Shown here in pieces: positions 28,336 through 34,760 of a stretch of 64,000 nt of DNA. The stretch spans positions 23,306 to 87,305 of the forward strand of contig CAJPFO010000066.1 in the NCBI GenBank assembly GCA_905339255.1. The letters run 5' to 3'. Made by a program: the position numbers and the translations under genes. Source of the DNA: Myxococcaceae bacterium (lineage in GTDB: Bacteria > Myxococcota_A > UBA9160). Numbering within the stretch: position 1 is the stretch's first letter; each line of letters starts with the position of its first letter. Below the pieces are notes generated by a model. It was not told the DNA's origin and made no database searches. It was given only the letters and a program-made list of their open reading frames with translations.

Positions 28336-29013
28336 ATGGTCGCAGCGAAGGGCAGGGCGGCGAAGGCGAGCCGGGCGACGCGCCGGCGGCTCGATACGCG
28401 CGAGCGGCTCGTCGAGGCCGCGCAGCGGATCGTCGCGCGCAAGGGAATCGACGCCACCACGATTGCCGACATCACGGACGAGGCCGATGTCGGGATCGGC
28501 TCCTTCTACAACCACTTCGCGTCGAAGGAGCGGATGATCGAGACGCTCGTCGCGCGCGCGATCGAAATCCACGGCGCAGGGCTCGATCGGCTCGTGTCTG
28601 GAGTGTCGGATCCGGCGGAACGCTTCTCGATCTGCGTTCGCCACACGATCCGCATGGCAGATCACGACCCGATCTGGGCCTGGTTCACGGTGCGCGCCGG
28701 AATCTACATCCGCGAGCTCGGCTCGGGGCTCGGCGTGCGACTGCTCCGCGACCTCACGGATGGGGTCGAAAGGGGTCGCTTCTCGCCACGCGAGCTCCGT
28801 TCGGCGCTCGTCGTGATCGGCGGAGCCGTCGTGGCGTCGATGCAGGGAAGGCTTCTCGGACTCCCGGACCTTCCCGACGAGGCGCTCGTCGCCGAAAACC
28901 TGCTTCGCATGCTCGGCGTACCGCCTCTCGAGGCGGAGAGGATCGGCCACCTGCCGCTCGGAGACGCGCACGACTCGACGCTACGCACGGGAACGGGAGG
29001 AGACGAACGATGA
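28336..29013 (+). CDS. TetR-family regulator of the molybdoenzyme operon
   Basis: A 225-aa repressor counted from ATG 28336, chosen because GGGAG is six bases upstream; a GTG lies at 28321. A basic tail (about 20 residues) precedes the helix-turn-helix: TRERLVEAAQRIVARKG, then TTIADITDEADVGIGSFYNHFASKERM. The F-Y-N-H-F-x-S-K-E form of the recognition helix end is common in regulators of hydrophobic-compound catabolism. Its stop overlaps the iron-sulfur subunit start as ATGA, so regulator and enzyme are one transcript. The palindrome at 28247-28262 is the expected binding site. Confidence 0.92.
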   Translation: MVAAKGRAAKASRATRRRLDTRERLVEAAQRIVARKGIDATTIADITDEADVGIGSFYNHFASKERMIETLVARAIEIHGAGLDRLVSGVSDPAERFSICVRHTIRMADHDPIWAWFTVRAGIYIRELGSGLGVRLLRDLTDGVERGRFSPRELRSALVVIGGAVVASMQGRLLGLPDLPDEALVAENLLRMLGVPPLEAERIGHLPLGDAHDSTLRTGTGGDER

Positions 29014-30080
29014 CGGCCGGCTCGACGACGAACGGATCCCCCTCGCGTCAGGTCGCGATGGTCTTCGACTTGAACAAGTGCATGGGCTGCCAGAGCTGCG
29101 CCGTGGCGTGCAAGATGCTCTGGACGCGCGAGCCCGGCGAAGAGCGACAGTGGTGGTGCACCGTCAACACGCAGCCGGGGCGCGGCTCGCCGCGCGATTG
29201 GGAGACCATGGGCGGGGGCTACCGCGACGGCCGCCTCGTCCTCGGCCGGGAGCCGACGCCCGAAGAGGTGGGCGGCGGCTGGAGCTTCAACCACGAAGAG
29301 GTCTTTTTCGGCGGCCGCGGTCGTTCTGCGCATCTCGAGCCGAAACAGGATGGACGGGATCCCGAATGGGGCCCGAACTGGGACGAAGATCAAGGCGGAG
29401 GGGAGTACCCGAATGCGTACTTCTTCTACCTCCCGAGGCTCTGCAACCACTGCACGAAGCCGGCGTGCGTCGAGGCCTGCCCGAGCGGCGCGATGCGGAA
29501 GCGCCGCGAGGACGGGATCGTCGTTCGTGACTAAGAGGTCTGCAAAGGTGCGCGCGCGTGCATGAAGGCGTGCCCGTACAAGAAGATCTACTGGAATCAC
29601 GTCCGGAACGTCTCGCAGCACTGCATCGGATGCTGGCCGAGGCTCGAACGCGGGGTCGCCCCTGCGTGCGTGCGGAACTGCCCGGGGCGCCTCGCCTTCG
29701 TCGGCTTCCTCGACGACGAGACCGGGCCGATCCATCGCCTGGTCCACGAATGGCGCGTGGCGCTCCCGCTCCATCCCGAGTACGGGACCGAGCCGAACGT
29801 CTTCTACGTCCCGCCGCTTTCGCCGCATCCGCTTCGCGCCGATCGCTCGGTCGACGAATCGAAGCCCCGGATTCCGCCCGCGTACCTCGAGTCCCTCTTT
29901 GGCGCCCGGGTCCACGCAGCGCTCGATCGGCTGCGCAGCGAGCTCGAAGCCGTCCGCGCGGGCGGTCGCTCCGAACTCCTCGACACGCTCATCGCCTACG
30001 AGTTCCGCTCGCTGCTCGGCCCGTTCACGGCCGAGCCCGTGACGATCCGCGCGACCACACCGGCGAAGGAGGCCCGATGA
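29010..30080 (+). pseudogene. Four-cluster iron-sulfur beta subunit, interrupted by an in-frame TAA
   Basis: Electron-transfer subunit of a type II DMSO-reductase-family enzyme (EbdB/DdhB/SerB/NarH-like). The frame is perfectly continuous from ATG 29010 to the TGA at 30080 except for TAA at 29532-29534, codon 175. Cys groups for four clusters are present: CMGCQSCAVACK at the start, CNHCTKPACVEACP before the stop, CKGARACMKACPYKK directly after it, and CIGCWPRLERGVAPACVRNCPGR. In homologues the stop position reads D-Q-E-x-C, so CAA or CAG (Gln) is expected and one C-to-T change makes TAA. Upstream and downstream halves keep full family character and codon bias, so the change is recent, a sequencing error, or read through. 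No ribosome site precedes ATG 29562. No signal peptide. Confidence 0.88.
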
Positions 30081-32839
30081 CGCCGTCCGACGGACACGAC
30101 GCGACGCACGAACGCTACCGCCGCCGTCTCGACTTCGATCGTGCGAGCTTCGGAACCCATTGCGTGAACTGCTTCCCGAACGACTGCCCGGTCTACGTGT
30201 TCGCGAAGGAAGGAAAGGTCGTCTTCGAGGAGGCTGCGGCGGTGCTCGAAACGGTCGAGCCCGGCGTCCCGGACATGAATCCGATGATCTGCCAGAAGGG
30301 GCTCGCGTGGAGCCGGCAGATGGAATCCCGGGACCGCCTCCTCCACCCGCTGCGCCGCGTCGGTGCGCGGGGCGAGGGGCGGTGGGAGCGCATCTCGTGG
30401 AACGAGGCGATCACCGAGATCGCCGACGCGATCCTCGACGCGATCGAGGAGGGTGGCCCCGAGGCGGTCGTCCTCGAGGGGACCCCCGAGATCTCGGCGA
30501 CGATCCCGGCCGCCCGCTTCATGGGTGCGCTCGGGGGGACGGTGATCGACGTCGACGCGACGATCAACGACTTCTGGGCGGGCTATCAGGCCGTCTTCGG
30601 GAAGTTCACGTTCACGAGCTCGGTCGATGACTTCTTCCACTCCGACGTCATCCTCTTCTGGCACGCGAATCCGGCGTACACGATGATCCCCGCCTTCCAC
30701 TACTTCGTGGAAGCCCGCTACAAGGGGGCGACGCTCGCGCTGATCTCGCCCGACGTGAGCCCCTCGCACTCTCACGTCGACTATCACGTTCCGGTTCGCC
30801 ACGGAACCGACGCCGCGCTCTGCCTCGCGATGTGCCAGGTGGTCCTCTCCGAGGGGCTCGCGGATCTTCGCTTCGCCGTCGAACAGACCGACCTCTCATT
30901 CCTCGTCCGCTGCGACGACGGTACGTATCTGCGCGAATCCGATCTCCGCGCCGGGGGACGCGAGGACCGCTTCTTCCACTGGCATCCGGATCGTGGCGTC
31001 GTCTCGGCCGATCCCGCGAGCCTGCGACTCGACTTCGAACCCGTCCTCGCGGGAGTCACGAAAGTCGAACTCGCATCGGGAGAGACGATCGAGGTCGAGC
31101 CGCTGCTCGCGCGCGTTCGGCGCGAGCTCGACGCGCACTACACGCCGGAGGCGGCGTCGCGGATCTCGGAGGCGCATCCCGACTCGATCCGGCTTCTCGC
31201 GCGCAAGGTCGCGCGCGGCCGCACCCACGTCGTGGTCGGCGCGGGCGTCGCCAAGTATTTCCACGGGGATCTCATGACGCGGGCGCTGCTCCTGCTCCTC
31301 GCGCTCACCGGCAACTGGGGCAAGAAGGGAACGGGAGTCGGCGGCTGGTGTTCGTCGATGTTCGACGGCCACGGTACGGCGATGGCGAAGACGAAGCGCG
31401 GCGTCGAGGGAGCCCGTGAGCTCGTCGAGGGTTTTCGCGCCATGACGGGGGCGCTTCGCGCGCAGGATCCGACGCTCTCGCCCGAACTCGCGGACCGTGC
31501 GCTCTGGAGAATGGTCGGCCCCTCTCGCGGCATGGTTCCCCCCGCCTTCTACTGGTACTGGCACGCGGGCTTCAAGGAGCGCTGGAACCGCCCCGAGTGG
31601 AACGACCCGGCGATGAAGCGTCCCTTCGACGACTACTGGAAGGAGGCGATCGAGTCGGGCGCGTGGAAGCAATCGGCGAGTCCCGCCCCGGATCATCCGC
31701 CTCGCGTGCTCCTCGAGATCGGAGGAAACACGCTCCGACGAACGCGCGGAGGGCAGGGGGTCCTTCTCGAACACCTCTGGCCGAAGCTCTCGAAGATCGT
31801 CGCAATGGACTACCGCATGTCGGAGACGGCGCTCCATGCCGACCTCGTCCTTCCCGCGACGCAGCACCACGAGAAGGTCTCGCTCAACATGCCGACCCCG
31901 TGGACGATGTTCCTCACGATGTCGGACCGCGTGGTCCCGCCGGCAGGCGAGGCACGGGACGAGTGGGAGGTCCTGGCCGATCTCGCGAAGGCGATCGGCG
32001 AGCGAGCGAAGGCCCGCGGCCTCGAATCGTGCGTCGACCGCTTCGGAGTGGTGCGGCGATTCGACGATCTCTGGAATCGCTACTCGCTCGACGGCGCGTT
32101 CGCGACCGGCGAATCGGCGGTGGCAGAGATGGTCGCGGACGCCGTCGAGATCGGAAACCTCCCGGCCGGAACGACCCTCGAGACCTTCCGCGAGCAGGGC
32201 TTCACGCGCTACGCGAACTGGGGCTTCCTGGCGCTCGCCACGGCGCAGGCTTCTCCCTTCCCGAAGGGCGAGACGCACGTCCCTCTTCGTGACCACATCG
32301 AGCAGGGGCTCCCCTACCCGACGCTCACGAGACGCGCGCAGTTCCTGATCGACCACCCCTGGTTCCTCGAGGCCGGCGAGGGTCTTCCCGCGCACAAGGA
32401 GCCGCCCGCGATGGGAGGGGAGCATCCCTTCCGTCTCTCGGGCGGGCACGCCCGCTGGAGCGTCCACGCGATGAACACGACGAACCCGCTCCTGCTCGAG
32501 ACGCATCGCGGGCGCCCATTCGTGCTGGTGAACGACCGCGACGCCGAGAGACTCGCGATCCGCGACGACGCTCGCGTGCGCGTCTGGAACGATGCGGGCG
32601 AGTTCATCGTCCACGCCCGTACCAGCCCGGCGCAGCGACCCGGCGCGCTCACCGTCTACAACGGATTCGAAGGCTTCATGTTCCCGGGCGGCAAGGGCCA
32701 CAACGAGGTCGAACCCGGCCTCGTGAAGTGGCTCCACCTCGTCGGCAACTACGGGCATCTCTCGTACACGCCCATGGAGTGGCAACCCGTCCCCTTCGAT
32801 CGCTGCATCCCCGTCGACATCGAACCCCTGAAGGAGTAA
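30077..32839 (+). CDS. Molybdopterin oxidoreductase catalytic subunit (type II DMSO reductase-like)
   Basis: A 920-aa bis-MGD molybdenum catalytic subunit. The N-terminal cluster ligands read His28-x3-Cys32-x4-Cys37, then Cys72; a His first ligand is the mark of type II enzymes such as NarG and ethylbenzene dehydrogenase. Asp165 in INDFW is a candidate Mo ligand. Later marks are LLLLALTGNWGKKGTGVGGW, HADLVLPATQHHEKVS, and a C-terminal dinucleotide-binding domain (LSGGHARWSVHAMN). There is no twin-arginine signal, so unlike most type II enzymes it should stay in the cytoplasm. It overlaps the beta subunit stop as ATGA. No gamma heme b subunit or TorD-like chaperone follows. Hydroxylation or dehydrogenation of a hydrocarbon or steroid side chain is plausible but unproven. 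Confidence 0.9.
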   Translation: MTPSDGHDATHERYRRRLDFDRASFGTHCVNCFPNDCPVYVFAKEGKVVFEEAAAVLETVEPGVPDMNPMICQKGLAWSRQMESRDRLLHPLRRVGARGEGRWERISWNEAITEIADAILDAIEEGGPEAVVLEGTPEISATIPAARFMGALGGTVIDVDATINDFWAGYQAVFGKFTFTSSVDDFFHSDVILFWHANPAYTMIPAFHYFVEARYKGATLALISPDVSPSHSHVDYHVPVRHGTDAALCLAMCQVVLSEGLADLRFAVEQTDLSFLVRCDDGTYLRESDLRAGGREDRFFHWHPDRGVVSADPASLRLDFEPVLAGVTKVELASGETIEVEPLLARVRRELDAHYTPEAASRISEAHPDSIRLLARKVARGRTHVVVGAGVAKYFHGDLMTRALLLLLALTGNWGKKGTGVGGWCSSMFDGHGTAMAKTKRGVEGARELVEGFRAMTGALRAQDPTLSPELADRALWRMVGPSRGMVPPAFYWYWHAGFKERWNRPEWNDPAMKRPFDDYWKEAIESGAWKQSASPAPDHPPRVLLEIGGNTLRRTRGGQGVLLEHLWPKLSKIVAMDYRMSETALHADLVLPATQHHEKVSLNMPTPWTMFLTMSDRVVPPAGEARDEWEVLADLAKAIGERAKARGLESCVDRFGVVRRFDDLWNRYSLDGAFATGESAVAEMVADAVEIGNLPAGTTLETFREQGFTRYANWGFLALATAQASPFPKGETHVPLRDHIEQGLPYPTLTRRAQFLIDHPWFLEAGEGLPAHKEPPAMGGEHPFRLSGGHARWSVHAMNTTNPLLLETHRGRPFVLVNDRDAERLAIRDDARVRVWNDAGEFIVHARTSPAQRPGALTVYNGFEGFMFPGGKGHNEVEPGLVKWLHLVGNYGHLSYTPMEWQPVPFDRCIPVDIEPLKE

Positions 32840-32844
32840 GAGCC

Positions 32845-33579
32845 ATGACGCTTCCCATCAGCATGCCCTGGTCGAATCCCGTCTTCGCGAAGCCTCCGCA
32901 CGCCTGGAAGGGTGTTCGCGTGGCGGTCTTCCCGTTCACGCCGAAGCCGGGATCGCTGCGCAGGATCCTCCCGCCCGGAATCGAGCCGCGAGATGGCCAG
33001 GGCATGGTGACGATGCTGTCGTATCCGCCCGGAGCGACGCGTCCTTTCCACGAATGCGTGGTGCTCGTTCCCGTCCGCGTCGGGGACGTCGTCGGCAACT
33101 ACGTTCCCTTCATCTACGTCACGACCGACGAGGCGCTCATCCCGGGCCGCGAGATCGCGGGCTTCCCGAAGCGGATCGCCGACGTCCGCTTCGAGCGCGA
33201 AGGAAGCCGCTTCGTGGGCTCTGCGACGCGGTTCGGAAAGACCTTCCTCTCGCTCGAGGGAAGCATCGACGCCCCGCTCCCGACCGAGCTCGCGGCTGCG
33301 CAGAGCCAGGCTTCGCGGGCACCGACCATCAACTACAAGCTGATCCCGGGGCCGGCGGGAGAGATCGAGGTCGAGGAGATCACCGCGGTCGACCTCGAGA
33401 TCGAGACGCGGGGCGCGGAGATCGGGAAGGGGAGGCTGCACTGCGAGGCCTCCGACGACGATCCGCTCGCCGAGCTCATCCCCGACACCGAAGGCCCGCT
33501 CGTTCTCCTCCTTTCCGACAACACCATTCCGGCAGGCCGCGTGCTGCAGCGAATCGAGCGAAAGGAGCGTGCATCGTGA
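32845..33579 (+). CDS. Acetoacetate decarboxylase-family protein
   Basis: A 244-aa protein of the Adc fold. The Schiff-base Lys is Lys109 in GREIAGFPKR, and the preceding Glu103 is conserved as in clostridial acetoacetate decarboxylase. In that enzyme this Lys forms a Schiff base with a beta-keto acid, and relatives act as aldolase-dehydratases. It follows the molybdoenzyme by five bases with AAGGAG as ribosome site, and its stop overlaps the next acyl-CoA dehydrogenase start. The position inside an operon with a molybdoenzyme suggests it handles a keto intermediate of the same pathway; the true substrate is unknown. Confidence 0.88.
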   Translation: MTLPISMPWSNPVFAKPPHAWKGVRVAVFPFTPKPGSLRRILPPGIEPRDGQGMVTMLSYPPGATRPFHECVVLVPVRVGDVVGNYVPFIYVTTDEALIPGREIAGFPKRIADVRFEREGSRFVGSATRFGKTFLSLEGSIDAPLPTELAAAQSQASRAPTINYKLIPGPAGEIEVEEITAVDLEIETRGAEIGKGRLHCEASDDDPLAELIPDTEGPLVLLLSDNTIPAGRVLQRIERKERAS

Positions 33580-34760
33580 TGGGACCCTCTCCGGAACAAC
33601 TCGAAATCCAGCAATGGGCGCGCGAGTTCGCGAAGCGCGAGATCGCGCCGCGGGCGCTCCTGCTCGACAAGGACCCCGAGAGCCCCGAGCGAGAGGCCCT
33701 GCTCCGGGCCGGGGCGAAGGCCGGAGTCCTCGGCGCGAGCCTGCCCGAGTTTCTCGGAGGCGCCGGACACGATCCGCTGACGGGCGCGCTCGTCACCGAG
33801 GAACTCGCCGCCGAGTGCTCGGGCTGCGCCGTGCTCTTCGGCGCGAACATGCTCGGGCTCCTCCCGGTCCTGCTCTCGGGAAACCTCGGCGCGATCGAGC
33901 GCTTCGTCCGGCCGATCACGCAGTCGTGGGAGACCGACGCGCCGAAGCTCGCCGCGCTCGCCGCGACCGAGCCCGACGCGGGCTCCGACTTCATCCAGGG
34001 GCATCCTCGCGGCAGGATGCGGACGCGCGTCGAGAAGAAGGACGGCGGGTACGTGATCAACGGCCGCAAGGTCTTCATCTCGAACGGATCGCTCGCGAGT
34101 CTCGTCACGGTCTTCGCGACGCACGATCCGAATGCGCCGATCCGCGAGAGCACCTCGTGCTTCGCCGTTCCGGCCGGCACGCCGGGCTTCTCGGTGGGGC
34201 AGGTCTTCGACAAGATGGGCCAGCGAGCGGCGCCGGCCGTCGAGCTCGTCTTCGACGACGTCGTCGTTCCCGACGAGAATCGACTCGGAAACGAGGGCGG
34301 TGGTTTCGCGCTCAACCGCCTCATCATGTCGGTCACGCGAACGCCGATCGCTGCGCTCTCGCTCGGCATCGCGCGGTCGGCGTACGAGAAGGCGCTCGCG
34401 TACGCGCGCGGCCGCGTCCAGGGCGGCGGCCCGATCGCGGGTCACCAGGCGGTCGAGATCATGCTGGCGGACATGGCGATCCGGGTCGAGGCGGCGCGAG
34501 GCCTCGTCTGGCGTGCCGCGAGCGCGATCGCGGCCGGAAAGCCGTCGCTCGAGCTCTCGTCGATGGCCAAGACGTTCGCTTCCGACTCCGCGGTGGCGAA
34601 CTCCCTCGATGCGATCCAGATCCTCGGCGGATATGGCTACATGCACGAATATGGAGTCGAGAAGCTCCTCCGCGACGCCAAGCTCACCCAGATCTACGAG
34701 GGAACCAACCAGATCAACCGCTTCGAGATCATGGAGGCGATCGCGGCGACCAGCGCCTGA
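33576..34760 (+). CDS. Acyl-CoA dehydrogenase
   Basis: A 394-aa FAD enzyme from GTG 33576 (the adjacent ATG 33579 is equally possible); AAAGGAG stands upstream and the start overlaps the stop of the Adc-like gene. It shows LAATEPDAGSDF for substrate/FAD contact, QILGGYGYMHEYGVEKLLRD and the catalytic Glu in QIYEGTNQI near residue 374. The standard motif separates it from the ACAD10/11-like paralogue at 26893. It is the last gene of the TetR-molybdoenzyme operon and would oxidise an acyl-CoA product after oxidation and CoA activation. Confidence 0.93.
   Translation: MMGPSPEQLEIQQWAREFAKREIAPRALLLDKDPESPEREALLRAGAKAGVLGASLPEFLGGAGHDPLTGALVTEELAAECSGCAVLFGANMLGLLPVLLSGNLGAIERFVRPITQSWETDAPKLAALAATEPDAGSDFIQGHPRGRMRTRVEKKDGGYVINGRKVFISNGSLASLVTVFATHDPNAPIRESTSCFAVPAGTPGFSVGQVFDKMGQRAAPAVELVFDDVVVPDENRLGNEGGGFALNRLIMSVTRTPIAALSLGIARSAYEKALAYARGRVQGGGPIAGHQAVEIMLADMAIRVEAARGLVWRAASAIAAGKPSLELSSMAKTFASDSAVANSLDAIQILGGYGYMHEYGVEKLLRDAKLTQIYEGTNQINRFEIMEAIAATSA

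What the first reader, a model, noticed from the sequence alone, without database searches (positions are those of the whole stretch)
29529..29567. In-frame TAA splits an otherwise intact iron-sulfur electron-transfer subunit
The frame is continuous from 29010 to 30080 except for TAA at 29532-29534. The stop lies between Asp and Glu just before the third Cys group (CKGARACMKACP), where homologues have Gln. A CAA-to-TAA transition is enough. The second half has 171 further codons with full family signatures, and the molybdenum subunit downstream depends on this partner. Options are a sequencing error, a recent nonsense mutation, or readthrough. TAA rules out the usual selenocysteine (TGA) and pyrrolysine (TAG) readings.
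Basis: partly seen in the sequence, partly recalled or inferred. Interest (0 to 1): 0.72.

Follow-up and report, generated by a model that had tools for sequence, protein, structure and literature searches.

The report
One stop codon breaks enzyme gene
A gene for an iron-sulfur helper subunit of a molybdenum enzyme carries one in-frame stop codon that its two closest relatives lack; this is likely an ordinary recent nonsense mutation or a one-base error in a draft genome, and our searches gave no support for a new way of reading the code.

Summary
In detail: frame 29010-30080 is open except for TAA at 29532-29534, and both halves match one family end to end. One detail is wrong: the column is Glu in 119 of the 120 best-listed full-length homologues and Asp in 1, never Gln; the two nearest orthologues are intact there with Glu codons, in the same TetR-beta-alpha setting. 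So the one-step CAA-to-TAA transition is not supported. Of 71 strong beta matches in 79 genomes of the order, only this one has an internal stop (one weaker fragment elsewhere also holds a TAA). Both halves show purifying selection (pairwise omega 0.11-0.16), all 15 conserved cysteines remain, and no column conserved at 99% has decayed: the break is very young or not real. Readthrough finds no support: none of 45 typed tRNAs has a UUA anticodon, the adjacent alpha gene ends in TAA, and the RNA after the stop folds no better than shuffles. No second, independent sequence of this species was found, so a real mutation cannot be told from a consensus error. If real, the loss may be buffered: the draft holds 12 alpha-like genes of this kind and two other intact beta genes. 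Low interest.

The parts
29010..30080 (+). beta (iron-sulfur) subunit gene of an ethylbenzene-dehydrogenase-like molybdoenzyme, interrupted
   Evidence: translation; TIGR03478 456.3 bits with X at the stop; 2ivf_B E 8.7e-122
29010..29531 (+). N half, 174 codons, Cys groups I and II (8 of 15 conserved Cys)
29532..29534 (+). in-frame TAA; Glu column in relatives
29535..30080 (+). C half, 181 codons, Cys groups III and IV (7 of 15 conserved Cys), then TGA
30077..32839 (+). alpha (molybdopterin) subunit gene, open throughout, ends in TAA; its ATG overlaps the beta TGA (ATGA)
   Evidence: PF00384, TIGR03479 771.1 bits; 2ivf_A; terminal codon
28321..29013 (+). TetR-type regulator gene; its stop overlaps the beta ATG
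   Evidence: PF00440, PF21306; same place in both orthologue loci
32845..33579 (+). acetoacetate-decarboxylase-like gene
   Evidence: PF06314; syntenic in CTSoil_098
33576..34760 (+). acyl-CoA dehydrogenase-like gene
   Evidence: PF00441/PF02770/PF02771; syntenic in CTSoil_098

Best explanation
The gene for an ethylbenzene-dehydrogenase-like beta subunit is cut by a single TAA, likely a recent nonsense mutation in this lineage that would leave no working beta subunit. Shown: the stop, the two intact orthologues, no other damage at conserved columns. Inferred: ribosomes stop after 174 residues; the fragment has Cys groups I and II without III and IV and would not carry a full set of iron-sulfur clusters; the ATGA overlap suggests alpha is translated by coupling, so its dose would fall too; two other intact beta genes may keep the loss tolerable. 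That the base is real rather than a consensus error is not shown.
For: Stop and frame. Orthologues in G001 and G025 (89% and 88% in the C half) intact with GAG and GAA, same TetR-beta-alpha order. Column Glu in 119 of the 120 best listed. Pairwise omega G000-G001 0.112 N, 0.125 C; G000-G025 0.160 N, 0.137 C; between the two intact genes 0.155 and 0.159: no relaxed selection visible, so young. All 15 conserved Cys kept; 0 of 93 columns conserved at 99% changed apart from the stop. A stop screen of 317 kb of this genome flagged 9 sites: this one, 6 shown to be separate neighbouring genes and 2 unresolved; 0 of 86 domain matches have stops: no flood of base errors. Other intact beta genes on C164.
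Against: One sequence only: no near-identical second copy in the protein collection among the best 120 rows of each search (full length 84-85%; N half 86%; C half 73%). The lack of any second lesion fits an error equally well; omega averages over the whole divergence and is blind to a very recent change. The draft is a fragmented 335-contig assembly.
Confidence: 0.52

Rival explanations
1. Consensus error or chimeric strain base in a metagenome assembly: the organism's gene is intact.
For: Draft of 335 contigs, 90% complete; single lesion, no decay, selection intact; the only internal stop among 71 strong beta matches in the order; no independent copy.
Against: No sign of a raised rate of stops elsewhere in the draft: 0 of 86 domain matches, and in 317 kb no other interrupted gene shown, 2 flagged sites unresolved.
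Confidence: 0.43
2. UAA is read through as an amino acid, giving full-length beta.
For: Frame stays open after the stop and shows purifying selection between species.
Against: 45 of 46 tRNA hits typed, none with anticodon UUA; the 46th is a remnant whose loop reads CGT by eye; the alpha gene next door ends in TAA; no internal stop in the other 70 strong beta matches; RNA after the stop z -0.32. The draft is 90% complete, so a missing tRNA is not excluded.
Confidence: 0.02
3. The two halves are made apart (restart at ATG 29562) and assemble as a split subunit.
For: ATG at 29562, 172 codons, with AAAGG 13 bases upstream.
Against: The restart product would lack Cys 178 and 184 of the third group; none of the other 70 strong matches in the order is split by an internal stop.
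Confidence: 0.02

Closest known systems
Ethylbenzene dehydrogenase beta subunit EbdB (PDB 2ivf chain B)
   Same: Aligned over residues 11-345 of 356, E 8.7e-122; same four Cys groups
   Different: EbdB has Gln where this clade has Glu and this gene has TAA; score 415.8 against the EbdB cut-off of 740
Steroid C25 dehydrogenase (S25DH) group
   Same: A review (PMC6153880, passages read) gives S. denitrificans seven more alpha and five more beta and gamma genes beside the first set: more alpha than beta, as here (12 and 3); a source names P0002 a steroid C-25 hydroxylase beta subunit
   Different: Substrate unknown here; no gamma (EB_dh) match on this contig, C66, though there are some on C164 and C293; alpha read from 30077 shows no evident twin-arginine signal by eye
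Perchlorate reductase beta subunit (PDB 4ydd chain B; the enzyme's name is recalled, the record says DMSO reductase family type II)
   Same: E 1.6e-111 over residues 10-332
   Different: weaker match than EbdB

Membership tests
TIGR03478 type II DMSO reductase iron-sulfur subunit | curated score cut-off 480.7 bits | tested here: not met
   456.3 with X at the stop; intact homologues P0001 461.5 and P0002 455.0 also miss it: relative of the subfamily, below its cut-off
EbdB equivalog NF042979 | curated cut-off 740 bits | tested here: not met
   415.8
EBDH-like beta subunits | four Cys groups for the iron-sulfur clusters | tested here: met
   15 of 15 conserved Cys kept, 8 before and 7 after the stop
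EBDH-like beta subunits | adjacent molybdopterin alpha gene | tested here: met
   30077-32839, PF00384, 2ivf_A E 3.1e-199
Pseudogene by nonsense mutation | disruption that intact orthologues lack | tested here: met
   G001 and G025 intact
Pseudogene by nonsense mutation | further decay or relaxed selection | tested here: not met
   pairwise omega 0.11-0.16, no other change at 99%-conserved columns
Pseudogene by nonsense mutation | base confirmed by reads or a second genome | not testable with these tools
   no reads held; no near-identical copy found
Programmed or suppressor readthrough | UUA-anticodon tRNA | tested here: not met
   none among 45 typed of 46 hits; draft 90% complete
Programmed or suppressor readthrough | stop conserved in relatives | tested here: not met
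   internal stop in 1 of 71 strong matches, this one

The most novel reading that the evidence does not exclude
UAA at this codon is decoded as an amino acid, so that a trickle of full-length beta subunit is made and sets the dose of this molybdoenzyme.
Probability: 0.02. Interest if true: 0.6.

Novelty: already known. Interest (0 to 1): 0.1.

Why it matters
Mostly as a correction: the stop should not be read as recoding, nor as a one-step Gln-codon change. If the mutation is real it is a fresh loss of one electron-transfer subunit in a genome with many more alpha than beta genes of this enzyme group, a natural test of whether beta subunits are shared between alpha paralogues.

Tried and rejected
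Readthrough: tRNA survey, RNA fold after the stop, stop use in the operon, recurrence in the order; no support. Recurrent stops in relatives: the C-half search flagged several rows with a stop inside; all nine flagged besides ours in the full-length search have it at codons 336-341, the normal C terminus. Left open: G027:C375, a fragment at a contig end, has an in-frame TAA (not followed); G028:C47 was seen but not settled; G033:C58 and G009:C180 were not looked at. A suppressor among untyped tRNA hits: the one not called by ARAGORN (C307) has an anticodon loop reading CGT and lacks a normal 5' half, so a remnant (by eye). Independent copies: three protein searches, only the best 120 rows of each seen (of 6429, 682 and 440; only the 7999 candidates sharing most words were scored; entries stand for 90% clusters); none near-identical, and the window's own halves are not listed either. 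Literature: ethylbenzene dehydrogenase with premature stop codon, 0 papers; steroid C25 dehydrogenase with paralog and beta subunit, 2 papers, of which passages of one were read.

Weak points of my own steps: the first stop screen missed the known stop with its thresholds. The second finds it plus 8 others; on checking those, 6 have two different or two separately complete domains on either side, so neighbouring genes (one of them, on C90, is followed by a partial CorC_HlyC domain); 2 (L040, L098) have no family upstream of the stop and stay unresolved. Frameshifts were not screened. One search printed wrong-strand rows for several loci; one search replaced it. One search failed on a wrong pattern; one search replaced it. 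Synonymous distances are high (0.46-0.97), so omega is rough.

Full report
What is there. The frame from ATG 29010 to TGA 30078-30080 holds 174 residues, TAA at 29532-29534, and 181 more residues. The two halves match consecutive parts of TIGR03478 (227.8 and 208.8 bits, profile 2-159 and 163-316). Read with X at the stop, the protein scores 456.3 bits, the same as intact homologues P0001 and P0002 (461.5 and 455.0); none of the three reaches the curated cut-off of 480.7. The nearest solved structure by sequence is the beta subunit of ethylbenzene dehydrogenase, 2ivf_B, E 8.7e-122. The next gene, alpha, begins at 30077 overlapping the beta stop and matches 2ivf_A.

What the codon is in relatives. 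In the 120 best-listed full-length homologues (of 6429 matches) the column is Glu in 119, Asp in 1, Gln in 0. Gln occurs in EbdB and in other paralogues. In this gene 10 Glu codons are GAA and 19 GAG.

Is it old? Pairwise omega between G000 and G001 is 0.112 for the N half and 0.125 for the C half, between G000 and G025 0.160 and 0.137, between the two intact genes 0.155 and 0.159. At 93 columns conserved at 99% (57 before and 36 after the stop) G000 has no change apart from the stop; at 135 columns conserved at 95% it has one, shared with both orthologues; all 15 conserved Cys are kept, 8 before and 7 after. The TetR-beta-alpha order is kept in both orthologue loci, and the two genes after alpha in CTSoil_098 (the G001 contig ends inside alpha). 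So the lesion is very young or not real.

Is it common? In 79 genomes of the order (all that the call searched, 200 asked for), 71 matches were found at E 1e-80 or better; 10 were flagged with a stop, of which 9 have it at the normal end (codons 336-341 of the matched stretch) and 1, this gene, inside. Below that threshold, a fragment at a contig end in G027 also has an in-frame TAA, so broken beta copies in drafts of this order may not be unique. In the own genome 0 of 30 PF00106, 0 of 38 PF02771 and 0 of 18 PF00384 matches have a stop inside. A codon-usage screen of 317 kb of this genome flagged 9 sites: this one, 6 that are neighbouring genes by their domains, and 2 unresolved.

Readthrough. 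Of 46 tRNA hits 45 have a typed anticodon, none UUA; there is a tRNA-SeC (TCA), irrelevant to TAA. The 46th hit is a truncated remnant with a CGT anticodon loop (by eye). The alpha gene ends in TAA, one of ten genes here whose stop was read. The 120 bases after the stop fold at z -0.32, 74 of 200 shuffles folding as well. On the other side, the draft is only 90% complete. A restart at ATG 29562 would lose Cys 178 and 184.

Mutation or error. No near-identical second sequence was found in the protein collection: best 84-85% full length, 86% for the N half, 73% for the C half, best 120 rows of each seen. The window's own halves are not listed either. Without reads the two cannot be told apart; I put a real recent mutation slightly ahead because nothing else looked at in the draft suggests a high error rate, but the margin is small.

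Consequence if real. The draft has 12 alpha-like genes (E 4.2e-147 or better, one of them cut by a contig end) and 3 beta genes of this kind, the two others without a stop on contig C164; a beta on missing contigs cannot be excluded. A review gives the sterol degrader S. denitrificans seven more alpha and five more beta and gamma genes beside the first set (PMC6153880, passages read). Sharing of beta subunits would make the loss tolerable; this is inference. The ATGA overlap between beta and alpha suggests, but does not show, that alpha translation would fall too.

Noticed in passing
G000 contigs C164, C66, C160, C202, C318, C42: 12 ethylbenzene-dehydrogenase-like alpha genes against 3 beta genes in one draft genome; six of the alphas lie on contig C164.
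   Followed up: partly
window 30077-32839: The alpha subunit and its orthologue in CTSoil_098 show no evident twin-arginine signal at the N terminus by eye, and there is no EB_dh (gamma) match on contig C66; the enzyme may be cytoplasmic with another electron outlet.
   Followed up: no
G000:C307:16909-16974: tRNA-like remnant with a Thr (CGT) anticodon loop and no normal 5' half; possibly an integration scar.
   Followed up: no
L048 (G027:C375, contig end): A beta-like fragment in another genome of the order with an in-frame TAA near its C-terminal part.
   Followed up: no
P0122, P0129: Two public beta homologues end near this position: P0122 seems frameshifted just after it, P0129 (602-base contig) ends at the equivalent Asp; stop or contig end is unknown.
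   Followed up: no
P0012: Homologue whose N part resembles one beta subgroup and whose middle resembles this one; possible recombinant or chimera (by eye).
   Followed up: no
L095:14780-14992 (G000:C90, - strand): A 71-codon open frame with only the later part of a CorC_HlyC domain (profile 37-78 of 81), directly after an ADP-ribosylglycohydrolase gene; possible gene remnant.
   Followed up: no
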